A stretch of DNA of 38,826 bases from SAR202 cluster bacterium (GTDB taxonomy: Bacteria; Chloroflexota; Dehalococcoidia; Lucifugimonadales; OSU-TB39): assembly GCA_009392195.1 (NCBI GenBank), contig VFGY01000031.1:1-38826 (forward strand). Reading direction: 5' to 3'. This document shows positions 13,877-19,228 of the stretch, piece by piece. The notes below the pieces were generated by a model, which saw only the letters and a program-made list of their open reading frames with translations, did not search any database and was not told where the DNA came from. A program made the position numbers and the translations under genes. Every line of letters begins with the position of its first letter. Positions within the stretch are counted from its first letter, which is position 1.

Positions 13877-14278
13877 TTGTCAAGAATAAAAATAAAACAA
13901 GCTGCTGAGATCCTAGGGGTATCTGAAAAGACTATTCGTCGGAGAATAGCAAAAGGCCAAGTCCAAGCAACAAAAGGTAAAACACCACAAGGATTCATAT
14001 ACCTGATAGATATAAATGACGATATATCTCCTACTACACAAAACCCAGAGGAATTAAATACTGAAAACAATGCCAGCAATCTCCCTCCAAACATTCTAGA
14101 TATGGAATTATTGAAAAAACAGTTCGATTTAAAAGACCAACAAATTGAGTCACAAAAAAAACAGATCGAATCTCAAATCAACCAAATCGAAGAGCTTTAC
14201 AAGATTATTCCAAAACTACAGTCCGATATAAATAAAATATCCGATAAATCTCGTTGGTGGAAATTTTGGGCAGCATGA
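13877..14278 (+). CDS. MerR/excisionase-type HTH protein with coiled coil
   Basis: A 133-residue protein starting at TTG, with AAAGGAG at 13860-13866 about 10 bases upstream. Residues 1-50 form a MerR/excisionase-like HTH: IKQAAEILGVSEKTIRRRI, then a wing-like basic stretch. A Ser/Asn/Pro-rich linker follows, then a clear coiled coil (about 85-122) with repeating Q-I-E-S-Q heptads. The tail is RWWKFWAA, an aromatic end often seen on small coiled-coil HTH proteins. It probably binds DNA as a dimer or oligomer. Its stop overlaps the next start as ATGA (14275-14278), so the downstream serine hydrolase is translationally coupled to it. Confidence 0.8.
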   Translation: MSRIKIKQAAEILGVSEKTIRRRIAKGQVQATKGKTPQGFIYLIDINDDISPTTQNPEELNTENNASNLPPNILDMELLKKQFDLKDQQIESQKKQIESQINQIEELYKIIPKLQSDINKISDKSRWWKFWAA

Positions 14279-15162
14279 GCAAATCCAATAACCAAAACTT
14301 AAGTGAAATCAAGTCTTTAGTTTCAGAAATAAATGGTGAAGTTGGAGTTGCAGCGCTAAACCTCAAAAATGATAAAAACATTTATATAAATGAAAATGAA
14401 TCATTTTTTATGGCCAGTGTATTTAAAATACCTTTACTAATCACGCTATATAAACAAGTTGACCTTGGGAATATAGATATGGACCAAAGAATCACACTGG
14501 CACAAGATTTAAAAACAGGAGGTTCTGGAGTACTAAGAGAACTTACACCTGGCATCCAACCTACACTTTTCGACTTGGCTATGCTGATGATAATTATTAG
14601 TGATAACACTGCAACTGATATTCTATTTAATATGTTAGGCAAAGATAAAATCAATTCTCTTATGCGTCAGAATAACTTATCGAAAACTTTTACTCCAATG
14701 TCATGTCAAGATCTCTTATCTAGTCTAGCAGGTATTGAGCCACCACAAGAAGCTACCTATGAAGACCTTGCTAGAATAATAGACGGACATTACATACCAC
14801 CAAATAATTGTTCTGCCTTGAATGAGGATAAATCAAACGTATCTACTGCATATGAAATGGTAACACTCATGAAATTATTGACAACTGGAAAAATTCTATC
14901 CGAATCTTCGACTAATTCAGTTTTATCAATTTTGAAAAGCCAAAAGCTGAAAACTATAATTCCACATTACATACCTAAAAACATCAAAATAGCTAACAAA
15001 ACTGGTGGAGTTTATAGCGTTAGGTCTGACGTAGGAACAGTTTGGTCTCCAAAAGGTCCGTACACAATTGCACTCATGGCAAAGAATGTTACAAATGAGC
15101 CAGACATAGATACCAAACTAGCAAAAATATCACTATCAATATATGAATATATGACTTCTTAA
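14275..15162 (+). CDS. Class A beta-lactamase-like serine hydrolase
   Basis: A 295-residue protein of the beta-lactamase2 family. Motifs are S48-V-F-K51 (nucleophile and lysine), S109-D-N111 and K242-T-G-G, with STAYEMVTLMKLL (190-202), a pattern conserved in class A enzymes. The omega-loop ExxLN motif of true class A lactamases is not evident; the nearest region reads TYEDLARI (161-168). There is no signal peptide, so the protein appears cytoplasmic, unlike resistance beta-lactamases. It may be an esterase, amidase or peptidase. An in-frame GTG exists at 14254, but the ATG at 14275 overlaps the upstream stop (ATGA), which I take as the start. I would not call it a resistance gene. Confidence 0.83.
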   Translation: MSKSNNQNLSEIKSLVSEINGEVGVAALNLKNDKNIYINENESFFMASVFKIPLLITLYKQVDLGNIDMDQRITLAQDLKTGGSGVLRELTPGIQPTLFDLAMLMIIISDNTATDILFNMLGKDKINSLMRQNNLSKTFTPMSCQDLLSSLAGIEPPQEATYEDLARIIDGHYIPPNNCSALNEDKSNVSTAYEMVTLMKLLTTGKILSESSTNSVLSILKSQKLKTIIPHYIPKNIKIANKTGGVYSVRSDVGTVWSPKGPYTIALMAKNVTNEPDIDTKLAKISLSIYEYMTS

Positions 15163-15859: not shown

Positions 15860-16348
15860 ATGTTTAACTTGATCAATCAAAATTCTTTGGTGATAGTATT
15901 TGTCCTATTATCAATCATTTTTAATTTGCTCATAGGGAAACATCTCGGATACAAGTGGACAGTATTTAGTACTGTAATATCAATAATATTCATTAGCGGG
16001 TTACTTTTTCTAACTTCTACAAAAAATAGCAAATTAGAAACTATTGATAATTTGAACCTAGCTTTTACAAAAAACGGTCCAATATTGATATATGTTTATT
16101 CAGACTGGTGACTAGCATGCACTGCTGCAAAGCCTGCCGTGAGCAGGCTTGAAACCAACCTTTCTAATGAAATCAGGGTTCTAAGAGTCGACGTTAAGTC
16201 AAGTGTTGGTAAACATATATGGAATGAATATAACGTCAGATCTGTGCCCACTTTCATATTATTTATTAACCAAAAACCCGTATGGAGAACAGTAAGCAAC
16301 GTACCAAATTCCAACATTATCCGAGAGAAAATTGCTAACGACACATAA
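15860..16348 (+). CDS. Membrane-anchored thioredoxin-like protein, candidate selenoprotein (TGA at CxxC)
   Basis: One reading frame of 163 codons interrupted only by TGA at 16109-16111 (codon 84). Residues 10-24 and 33-51 are membrane helices; the thioredoxin domain starts at about residue 66. The active site reads YSDW-TGA-LAC-TAAKP, so TGA occupies exactly the first cysteine of the W-C-x-x-C motif, with C87 as partner and P91 matching the helix-2 proline. After the TGA the fold continues intact: IRVLRVDV, YNVRSVPTF with cis-Pro P130, and FINQKPVW. This argues against a decayed gene. A SECIS-like hairpin follows at 16130-16150. The likely product is a 162-residue U84-x-x-C87 thiol-redox protein. 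The alternatives are a nonsense mutation or a base-call error from TGC/TGT. No Sec machinery gene lies in the window. The Shine-Dalgarno is poor. Confidence 0.75.
16130..16150 (+). promoter_or_regulatory. Candidate bacterial SECIS hairpin
   Basis: A perfect 8-bp stem, AAGCCTGC (16130-16137) with GCAGGCTT (16143-16150), closes a five-base loop CGTGA. There are 27 bases between the TGA at 16109-16111 and the loop G at 16139. Known bacterial SECIS elements have a small apical loop with a G in the first two positions and lie roughly 16-37 bases after the UGA. This hairpin meets both points and carries the GU pair that SelB recognises in E. coli fdhF. It lies inside the coding sequence, as bacterial SECIS elements do. 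Confidence 0.65.
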
Positions 16349-17009: not shown

Positions 17010-17468
17010 ATGAAATTAACAGCGGGTGATGTTGCTCCAGATTTTTCTTTACCTAGTTCAAGTGGACAAAAGGTTAGCTTAAATTCACTTAAAGGACAAA
17101 AGGTAGTGATTTTCTTTTATCCAAAAGATGACACTCCTGGTTGCACTATAGAAGCATGTGAATTCCGTGATAGATCCAAAGAAATCTCGGATAAAGGCAC
17201 CAAAATATTTGGGGTTAGCCCAGACAATTTGGAATCTCATGATAAATTCATCAATAAATTTGACCTTAACTTCGAGCTTTTAGCTGATGAAGATAACACC
17301 GTATCTACAAATTACGGTGCTTGGGGTGAGAAAAACATGTACGGTAAAGTGACGATTGGTATGAAAAGAATGACTTTTCTCATAGATGAAAATGGTAATA
17401 TTGAAAAAATATGGGGTAAAGTTAAACCTGAAGGCCACGCACAACAAATAATTGATGCAATAAGCTGA
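17010..17468 (+). CDS. bcp: Thiol peroxidase of the BCP/PrxQ type
   Basis: A 152-residue peroxiredoxin. The peroxidatic cysteine is C45 in DDTPGCTIEAC, and C50 five residues later is the resolving cysteine typical of the atypical two-Cys BCP/PrxQ group. FFYPKDDTPGCT and the later MKRMTFLIDENG are family-typical. It reduces peroxides in the cytoplasm and needs thioredoxin for recycling; a thioredoxin-like gene lies about 0.7 kb upstream, though that one is membrane-anchored. The start follows AAGGA by about 6 bases. Confidence 0.93.
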   Translation: MKLTAGDVAPDFSLPSSSGQKVSLNSLKGQKVVIFFYPKDDTPGCTIEACEFRDRSKEISDKGTKIFGVSPDNLESHDKFINKFDLNFELLADEDNTVSTNYGAWGEKNMYGKVTIGMKRMTFLIDENGNIEKIWGKVKPEGHAQQIIDAIS

Positions 17469-17471
17469 GTT

Positions 17472-18698
17472 TCAACTTTCTACTGCAAATACATCTATTT
17501 CAAAATCCAACTCTTCGCTTGCCAAAGATTCAACGACTAACCCAGTCGATGCGGGATACACTCCATTGAGATATTTGGCGATGACAGGATAAACAATGTC
17601 CCTCGTATCTTGACTTTTAACATAAGTTATTACTTTGCATACATCTTTCATATTGGAACCTACCCTCTCCAACAAAACCTTTACATTTTGCATCGCTACT
17701 TCAGCCTGTAACTTAGCATCACCTTTGCCAATTAGCTTACCTGTCTCCAACGATAATCCTGTTTGGCCTTGCAAAAATATCGACTTGCCCGCCTTAACCA
17801 CTTTACTTAATGGGAAATTTAATCCTGGTAAATAATTTGGTTTAGATTGAAAATATCTTTCATGCTTCTTACTAGAAGCGGAATATGCAAATACGTCTAT
17901 CTCCACGGCCAATTCTTTTTTAGCTAATCCTTTTACAACAACGCCTGTAGAAACTGGCGCAATATCTCCAAGATGTTTTGCGATAACCGGATAAACTTGA
18001 GACCTATACGATAAATCAGTGACATAAACCGTGATTTTACATATATCTTCTACTGATGAGCCAACTTCGCTTAATAGTTCTATTATATTTTGCATTGCCT
18101 GTTCGGTTTGAATGGCAGGATCACCTTCTCCGATAAATTCTTTACCATTTAAACTTAATCCTGTTTGTCCTTGTAAAAATATATTGTCATTAGCTTTTAT
18201 TACTCTAGAGTTTTGAAATTCCAATTTGGGCATTAAATACCCATCCTTCGCATTAATACAAGATAACCTTTTGTGTTGGTCACCCATTTTTTGAGGCAGT
18301 ATCGCCCATACGTCAATCTCAAAATCCAAGTATGGCTTAGCTAAAGATTTAACCACTATTCCTGTTGATACTGGATTTACTCCTTCTAGGTGCTTTGCAA
18401 TAACAGGATAAACATCATTCCTATACGAACGCTCAGTCGTATATGGAATTATTTTACAGATATCACTCATACTTGCACCTGATTCTTCAAGCAACATTTT
18501 AACGTTCCTCATAGCATTTTCAGCTTGTTCAGCTGGATTTCCTTCACCAACAAAACCTTTACCGTCAAGCGTTAAACCAGTCTGGCCCAAAACAAAAACT
18601 TGGTCATGAGCTACAACCACCTGACTTGAACCATATCTCAATCCAGGCATCAAATATCCACCTTTGGTATTAGATTTTCTTACTCTAGAGTGTGTCAT
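17472..18698 (-). CDS. Three tandem Rid (YjgF/YER057c/UK114) domains in one protein
   Basis: A 408-residue protein made of three Rid-family domains at about 15-135, 153-273 and 288-407. Each repeats the same landmarks: GQTGL (38-42, 177-181, 311-315), a helix ending D-[IV]-C-K, YPVIAKxL, then P-[VA]-STG (STG at 111, 250, 384) and a final EIDV[WF]A strand. Rid proteins are homotrimers with active sites between subunits, so this chain probably folds as a built-in trimer. The catalytic arginine of RidA (PAR-S in E. coli) is serine in all three (PVS/PAS), so classical enamine/imine deaminase activity is doubtful. The start overlaps the msrA stop (ATGA at 18695-18698), so the two are translationally coupled. 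Confidence 0.88.
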   Translation of the reverse strand: MTHSRVRKSNTKGGYLMPGLRYGSSQVVVAHDQVFVLGQTGLTLDGKGFVGEGNPAEQAENAMRNVKMLLEESGASMSDICKIIPYTTERSYRNDVYPVIAKHLEGVNPVSTGIVVKSLAKPYLDFEIDVWAILPQKMGDQHKRLSCINAKDGYLMPKLEFQNSRVIKANDNIFLQGQTGLSLNGKEFIGEGDPAIQTEQAMQNIIELLSEVGSSVEDICKITVYVTDLSYRSQVYPVIAKHLGDIAPVSTGVVVKGLAKKELAVEIDVFAYSASSKKHERYFQSKPNYLPGLNFPLSKVVKAGKSIFLQGQTGLSLETGKLIGKGDAKLQAEVAMQNVKVLLERVGSNMKDVCKVITYVKSQDTRDIVYPVIAKYLNGVYPASTGLVVESLASEELDFEIDVFAVES

Positions 18699-19228
18699 TG
18701 GTATCCTGTTTGCTCCTTAAATTTTGCTAATTTAGGTGAGATCACAAACTGACAATAGGGATTATTTGGGTTCATTTGGTAATAATTTTGGTGATAATCT
18801 TCAGCTCGATAAAATATTCCTAATTTCTTGATTTCTGTCACAATTGGATTAGGCCATAACCCATATTCATCTAATTTTTTGATTGTATTTATAGATATTT
18901 GCATTTGGGTTTCATCATGGTAAAAAATCGCTGACCTATATTGGGTACCTATATCATTTCCCTGTCGATTTAAAGTAGTAGGATCATGTATTGAGAAAAA
19001 TATATCCAACACATCTTGAAATCCTATAACACCTAAATCGAACTTTATCTGTACAACTTCAGCATGTCCTGTATCACCAGTACAAATATCTTCATAGCTC
19101 GGTTGGGGAGTCTTACCTCCTGTATATCCAGATACCACATCTGTCACACCATTGACTCTAAGGTACACCGCCTCCAAACACCAAAAACAACCTCCACCTA
19201 AAGTTGCCGTCTCATATCCATTACCCAT
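18695..19228 (-). CDS. msrA: Peptide-methionine (S)-S-oxide reductase MsrA
   Basis: A 177-residue MsrA with GGGCFWCLEA, catalytic C14, followed by VSGYTGGKTPQPSYEDICTGDTGHAE and SAIFYH, all family-typical. It reduces methionine-S-sulfoxide in proteins and free methionine, using thioredoxin. Cys residues at 17, 48 and near the C-terminus (YCQF) could resolve the sulfenic acid. The start follows AAGGAAAAGTT. It overlaps the triple Rid gene by four bases. No MsrB is fused to it or lies next to it. Confidence 0.95.
   Translation of the reverse strand: MGNGYETATLGGGCFWCLEAVYLRVNGVTDVVSGYTGGKTPQPSYEDICTGDTGHAEVVQIKFDLGVIGFQDVLDIFFSIHDPTTLNRQGNDIGTQYRSAIFYHDETQMQISINTIKKLDEYGLWPNPIVTEIKKLGIFYRAEDYHQNYYQMNPNNPYCQFVISPKLAKFKEQTGYQ

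What the first reader, a model, noticed from the sequence alone, without database searches (positions are those of the whole stretch)
15860..16348. Candidate selenoprotein: thioredoxin-like gene with TGA at the first cysteine of CxxC
The frame runs 163 codons with one TGA, at 16109-16111. It reads W-TGA-L-A-C-T-A-A-K-P, which places TGA exactly where thioredoxins have the nucleophilic Cys. The domain after it is intact (VLRVDV, SVPTF with cis-Pro). An annotator would split this into an 83-residue membrane stub and a headless fragment starting at GTG 16139. A two-helix membrane anchor on a U-x-x-C thioredoxin domain would be an uncommon arrangement; I know of no described example.
Basis: partly seen in the sequence, partly recalled or inferred. 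Interest (0 to 1): 0.93.

Follow-up and report, generated by a model that had tools for sequence, protein, structure and literature searches.

The report
Membrane-anchored selenocysteine thioredoxin in Chloroflexota
The apparent stop codon in this gene is almost certainly read as the rare amino acid selenocysteine, which sits at the reactive centre of a thioredoxin domain held on the membrane by two helices; many relatives across a bacterial phylum keep the same codon and RNA signal.

Summary
The observation and the selenoprotein reading both hold. Frame 15860-16348 encodes two membrane helices and a thioredoxin domain, with TGA at the first Cys of CxxC. In 100 family genes from the same order (window's own included) the site is TGA in 55 and TGT/TGC in 45; 28 further loci gave 20 TGA and 8 Cys. 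Eighteen bases after the TGA lies a hairpin with a short G-containing loop, as in bacterial SECIS elements. It covaries and exceeds a codon-preserving null in TGA genes but not in Cys genes. The genome has SelA, SelB, tRNA-Sec (UCA) and a SelD that itself has an in-frame TGA. Sequence after the TGA is under purifying selection. Decay, sequencing error and chance are excluded; no protein was measured. The fold is ordinary thioredoxin, and UxxC thioredoxins are a known selenoprotein class. New here: the two-helix anchor, probably with the domain outside the cytoplasm; phylum-wide spread; no NCBIfam cut-off met by the 7 members scored; no DsbD_TM/CcdA or VKOR match in this genome. Electron partner and substrate are unknown.

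The parts
15860..16348 (+). selenoprotein gene: 162 residues, two transmembrane helices plus thioredoxin domain, Sec at residue 84
15884..15946 (+). first predicted membrane helix (residues 9-29)
   Evidence: AlphaFold2 helix; hydropathy
15950..16015 (+). second predicted membrane helix (residues 31-52)
   Evidence: AlphaFold2 helix; hydropathy
16043..16342 (+). thioredoxin-fold domain (residues 62-161)
   Evidence: Pfam PF00085; AlphaFold2 and Foldseek PDB hits to thioredoxins
16109..16111 (+). TGA read as selenocysteine (residue 84, first position of UxxC)
   Evidence: TGA or Cys codon in 100 of 100 order-level family genes
16118..16120 (+). resolving Cys87 of the UxxC motif
   Evidence: invariant in the 19-row alignment A1
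16130..16150 (+). SECIS-like hairpin: 8-bp stem AAGCCTGC/GCAGGCTT, loop CGTGA
   Evidence: fold; codon-preserving null; covariation
16247..16249 (+). Pro130, position of the thioredoxin cis-proline
   Evidence: invariant in the 19-row alignment A1; cis geometry recalled from thioredoxins, not measured

Best explanation
The gene makes a full-length selenoprotein. SelB and Sec-tRNA(UCA), recruited by the hairpin at 16130-16150, decode TGA 16109-16111 as selenocysteine (shown by comparative evidence, not by experiment). The product is anchored by two membrane helices whose connecting loop is positively charged. Both ends and the thioredoxin domain therefore most likely face outside the cytoplasm (inferred, about 75%). 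There Sec84 attacks a disulfide or another oxidised group on a substrate, and Cys87 resolves the adduct as a Sec-S bond (inferred from thioredoxin chemistry). What recharges or oxidises it is unknown; the usual partners DsbD/CcdA (PF02683) and VKOR (PF07884) gave no match in this genome.
For: Site codon TGA/TGT/TGC only: 55/24/21 of 100 genes in 98 fetched loci, the window's own gene included; 20 TGA and 8 Cys of 28 further loci. Hairpin: core pairs 5.20 of 6 against 3.70 in a codon-preserving null for 55 TGA genes (53 above the null mean, 26 at p<0.05), and 3.02 against 2.93 for 45 Cys genes (28 above, 0 at p<0.05); window hairpin -13.2 against -2.9 kcal/mol, 0 of 300 null draws as low. Covariation over 60 distinct hairpins: 70 compensatory cells against a shuffled mean of 24.4 (0 of 500 as high); G at loop position 1 or 2 in 57 of 60. 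Sec machinery over the curated cut-offs: SelA 529.6, SelB 329.5, SelD 364.8 with its own TGA, tRNA-Sec 69 bits. dN below dS after the TGA in 13 of 13 hand-picked close pairs. Loop charge 2.18 positive per TGA protein against 0.45 at the N-terminus and 1.11 after helix 2. Structure.
Against: No experiment. 11 of the 55 TGA genes have four or fewer of the six core pairs at the standard place; of 12 genes re-folded more widely (those 11 and L133), 1 reached p<0.05. In one search, 5 of 47 TGA genomes have no SelB over the cut-off (55-88% complete; G181 has a partial 229-bit match), and 23 of 33 Cys-only genomes have SelB too, so co-occurrence is only modest support. G002, a TGA genome, has no tRNA-Sec at E<=1e-8. 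The shuffles do not control for relatedness, and 7 of 500 reached the number of pair types. No neighbouring gene suggests a partner. Orientation rests on charges alone; 4 of 55 TGA proteins do not show two clear hydrophobic stretches.
Confidence: 0.9

Rival explanations
1. Same selenoprotein, but the thioredoxin domain faces the cytoplasm and is recharged by thioredoxin reductase, acting as a membrane-held reductant for cytoplasmic enzymes such as the peroxiredoxin and MsrA encoded nearby.
For: No DsbD_TM or VKOR match in the genome; AhpC/TSA peroxiredoxin at 17010-17468 and MsrA at 18695-19228.
Against: Positive charges lie in the loop between the helices in TGA and Cys forms alike, which by the positive-inside rule (recalled) puts the domain outside. 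None of the 22 largest neighbour clusters holds a window gene, so the peroxiredoxin/MsrA proximity is not a recurrent one there.
Confidence: 0.2
2. Pseudogene, or sequencing error at a TGC/TGT codon.
For: An in-frame TGA by itself; mechanical ORF calling ends the gene there.
Against: TGA at the same codon in 54 other order-level and 20 further phylum-level genes; purifying selection after it; pairing beyond the codon null only in TGA forms.
Confidence: 0.01
3. TGA is read as tryptophan or another standard amino acid in this lineage.
For: None beyond the open frame.
Against: 6 of 26 long window ORFs end in TGA. Homologues without TGA have Cys at the site, 45 of 45. A full Sec pathway is present.
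Confidence: 0.01
4. A regulatory stop: the 83-residue membrane peptide is an important product, and full-length protein appears only when selenium is available.
For: Competition between termination and Sec insertion is general knowledge for UGA decoding (recalled). The 26 codons before the TGA have dN below dS in 12 of 13 pairs, though this holds for any coding gene; the helices themselves were not tested.
Against: Cys forms have no stop at the site and so make only the full protein; nothing shows a function for the stub.
Confidence: 0.08

Closest known systems
Sec-containing thioredoxin (Trx, PF00085, UxxC), listed as experimentally verified in PMC13188914 (passages read)
   Same: Thioredoxin domain family, UxxC with Sec at the first position.
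   Different: The review's passage describes thioredoxins as small; this one has two N-terminal membrane helices, and the window protein is well under the thioredoxin TIGR01068 cut-off (49.6 against 96.8 bits).
GOS 'Trx-like 3' (cd02950 at e-value>0.001, UxxC, 212 sequences, more abundant in marine samples; PMC2398784, passages read)
   Same: Weak thioredoxin-like match, UxxC; may well contain members of this family.
   Different: No membrane anchor is mentioned (the word 'membrane' does not occur in the main text); its sequences could not be compared here.
GOS_C (NF045500, UxxC, Trx-like fold)
   Same: UxxC thioredoxin-like selenoprotein from marine metagenomes (PMC2398784, PMC13188914, passages read).
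   Different: NF045500 is not among the matches at E<=1 for 7 members or E<=0.01 for 19.
TlpA/ResA/CcmG and thylakoid TxlA/HCF164-type membrane-anchored thioredoxins (recalled)
   Same: Thioredoxin domain tethered to the membrane.
   Different: Those have one anchor helix and depend on CcdA/DsbD (recalled); no DsbD_TM match here. The dsbE, TlpA and ResA models that appear score below their cut-offs.
Rhodanese/DsbD fusion-like selenoprotein TsoB (NF045694)
   Same: Weak match of the thioredoxin part.
   Different: 21.5 bits against a cut-off of 805, over 35-139 of this 162-residue protein only.

Membership tests
Bacterial selenoprotein | in-frame TGA aligned to a conserved redox Cys, with TGA homologues elsewhere | tested here: met
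Bacterial selenoprotein | SECIS stem-loop downstream of the TGA: apical loop 16-37 nt away, G among the first two loop bases (model as given in PMC13188914) | tested here: met
   window loop CGTGA starts 26 nt after the TGA; G in 57 of 60 distinct hairpins; 11 of 55 TGA genes have a poor stem at this place
Bacterial selenoprotein | genome encodes SelA, SelB, SelD and tRNA-Sec (UCA) | tested here: met
Bacterial selenoprotein | selenium in the full-length product | not testable with these tools
   needs mass spectrometry or 75Se
Thioredoxin domain (PF00085) | profile score over the gathering cut-off | tested here: met
   47.3 against 23.5 bits; fold
Thioredoxin equivalog (TIGR01068) | curated score cut-off | tested here: not met
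   49.6 against 96.8 bits for the window protein; the other 6 members scored lie lower
GOS_C (NF045500) | match to the NCBIfam model | tested here: not met
   no match at E<=1 in 7 members
GOS Trx-like 3 (cd02950) | sequence similarity to the 2008 set | not testable with these tools
   the set's sequences are not held here
DsbD/CcdA-dependent extracytoplasmic thioredoxin | DsbD_TM partner in the genome | tested here: not met
   0 matches to PF02683 in a 97.9%-complete genome; controls ring in 10 of 14; related families such as DsbD_2 were not searched

The most novel reading that the evidence does not exclude
A phylum-wide family of extracytoplasmic, membrane-anchored selenothioredoxins in Chloroflexota that works without DsbD/CcdA or VKOR, so that an unrecognised electron route (perhaps involving the invariant Asn6/Ser9 at the membrane anchor) drives selenium-based thiol chemistry on the outside of these cells.
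Probability: 0.3. Interest if true: 0.75.

Novelty: new variant of a known kind. Interest (0 to 1): 0.55.

Why it matters
Mechanical ORF calling truncates this gene, and would truncate the 74 other TGA genes read here in the same way. It adds a membrane-anchored form to the selenoprotein list, gives a family with both Sec and Cys members (8 changes on the tree, at least 4 forced by well-supported branches) for studying why Sec is kept or lost, and raises a concrete question: what passes electrons to or from it where neither DsbD_TM/CcdA nor VKOR was found.

Tried and rejected
The first genome-contig scan found no relative; one of its patterns used Cys at the TGA. Rfam gave four matches at E<=10 around the hairpin, all below gathering score. 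The dinucleotide-shuffle z-score of the 57-base fold is weak (-1.63, 13 of 200 shuffles as low); the codon-preserving null is the test I rely on. My first reading of the relatives took minus-strand loci in the wrong orientation and was replaced. Gene neighbours gave no evident partner (the 21 neighbour proteins printed were judged by eye, not scanned). Plasmid and phage collections hold only partial thioredoxin matches: 0 of 15 and 0 of 4 matching records cover 80% of the query. Frameshift decay, Trp recoding and chance were rejected as above. Other in-frame TGAs in the window were listed, not tested against homologues.

Full report
The frame is as described. Window 15860-16348 encodes 162 residues with a single TGA at codon 84 in YSDW-TGA-LAC. 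The thioredoxin model PF00085 matches across it, and AlphaFold2, with Cys standing for Sec, predicts two helices, then a thioredoxin fold with residue 84 at the catalytic position; Foldseek's best PDB matches are thioredoxins. TGA is a normal stop in 6 of 26 long window ORFs.

Relatives. A search of 59 genomes (the window's own and 58 of the same order) gave 18 full-length relatives whose loci I aligned, 14 with TGA and 4 with Cys at the site, at 24-37% identity. I took 98 loci whose matches resemble the two-helix family and read the site in all: 100 distinct genes, the window's included, 55 TGA, 24 TGT, 21 TGC. One partial match of this kind (G137) was not fetched, nor were the plain-thioredoxin matches. 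TGA genes occur in 20 of the coded families of the order (my tally). In 400 genomes drawn from the phylum, 49 matched at E<=1e-18, 7 of them of the order (own included) and 42 outside it. Of the 25 new loci held from there plus 3 named loci, 20 have TGA and 8 Cys. The named relatives are Chloroflexi and Anaerolineales MAGs, so I infer the phylum Chloroflexota; no call names the order.

SECIS. The window hairpin is AAGCCTGC-CGTGA-GCAGGCTT, starting 18 nt and with its loop 26 nt after the TGA, within the bSECIS model quoted in PMC13188914 (passages read). Because the stem also encodes protein, I redrew synonymous codons with local codon usage. TGA genes have more core pairs than the null (5.20 of 6 against 3.70; 53 of 55 above the null mean, 26 of 55 at p<0.05); Cys genes do not (3.02 against 2.93; 28 of 45 above the mean, 0 of 45 at p<0.05); a hairpin below -5 kcal/mol is found in 40 of 55 and 4 of 45. 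Over 60 distinct hairpins from 75 TGA genes 85.6% of core pairs are standard (shuffled mean 71.8, 0 of 500 as high), with 70 compensatory cells (shuffled mean 24.4, 0 of 500 as high) and 15 further pair types (11.6, 7 of 500 as high); sliding the partner by -3, -2, -1 or +1 columns gives 10-22 compensatory cells. These shuffles do not control for relatedness. Against the reading, 11 of 55 TGA genes have four or fewer core pairs; of 12 genes re-folded more widely, 1 (L067) reached p<0.05. They may use other SECIS shapes.

Machinery. SelB (C20, 329.5 bits), tRNA-Sec UCA (C16, 69 bits), SelA (C25, 529.6) and SelD (C25, 364.8) are present in the assembly. SelD has its own TGA, read as U in CAGUAAK. 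The assembly is rated 9.2% contaminated, but G+C of these loci (0.33-0.37) matches the window (0.36), and relatives repeat the pattern. Of 80 genomes searched (of 96 wanted), SelB is over the cut-off in 42 of 47 with a TGA gene and 23 of 33 with Cys genes only. Among the 59 genomes, tRNA-Sec at 59 bits or more occurs in 14 of 15 with a full-length TGA gene (not G002) and 2 of 5 with a Cys gene only (my tally; one search used strict filters).

Selection and evolution. In 13 of 13 hand-picked close pairs dN is below dS after the TGA, for example 0.04 against 0.42; in the 26 codons before it this holds in 12 of 13. On a tree with the site masked, Sec and Cys need 8 changes, at least 4 forced by well-supported branches, against a shuffled mean of 33.

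Topology and function. Two clear hydrophobic stretches are seen in 51 of 55 TGA and 43 of 43 Cys proteins scored (2 of 45 Cys fragments dropped out). The loop between them carries 2.18 positive charges per TGA protein, against 0.45 before helix 1 and 1.11 after helix 2; Cys forms show 3.02, 0.23 and 1.00. By the positive-inside rule (recalled) the thioredoxin domain faces outward. The genome has no match to DsbD_TM or VKOR; DsbB and DsbD_2 were not searched. Neighbouring genes recur within some coded families (f28, f34), but none of the 22 largest neighbour clusters holds a window gene, and I saw no redox partner in the 21 neighbour proteins read by eye. I therefore commit to thiol-disulfide chemistry at the outer face of the membrane with unknown partner.

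Known context. No NCBIfam cut-off is met by the 7 members scored, and NF045500 (GOS_C) is not matched. Reviews of 2022 and 2026 (PMC9312934, PMC13188914; passages read) list UxxC thioredoxins and many Trx-like families; in the passages I saw none is described as having a two-helix anchor, and 'Chloroflexi' does not occur in either main text. 'Trx-like 3' of PMC2398784 (passages) could include this family. I also saw passages of PMC1088965, PMC12013277, PMC5330540 and PMC5736913 (Sec formate dehydrogenases in Chloroflexi); none describes it. Ten paper searches showed no description of it; supplements could not be read.

Noticed in passing
L002, L009 and places listed: A plain thioredoxin gene lies within 1 kb of tRNA-Sec in 40 of 47 genomes tallied, a recurrent trxA-selC linkage; in the window's own genome they are about 21 kb apart.
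   Followed up: partly
L125/L112 (G130) and L126/L105 (G142): Two genomes carry both a TGA copy and a Cys copy; their four-gene TGA clade is nested in a Cys clade and has a poor stem at the standard place.
   Followed up: partly
L061 and L062: Two adjacent family copies in G031 and G231, both with TGA at the site; G282, G326 and G553 also have neighbouring copies, each with one TGA.
   Followed up: no
window 17010-17468 and 18695-19228: A peroxiredoxin (AhpC/TSA) and MsrA lie within 3 kb of the gene; both enzyme types usually use thioredoxin (recalled).
   Followed up: no
window 15875-15886: Asn6 and Ser9 at the start of helix 1 are invariant in the 19-row alignment although the helices vary.
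   Followed up: no
window 17472-18698: One protein matches the Ribonuc_L-PSP (RidA-type) domain in three stretches.
   Followed up: no
window 14254-15162: A protein matching the Beta-lactamase2 enzyme family lies upstream on the same strand.
   Followed up: no
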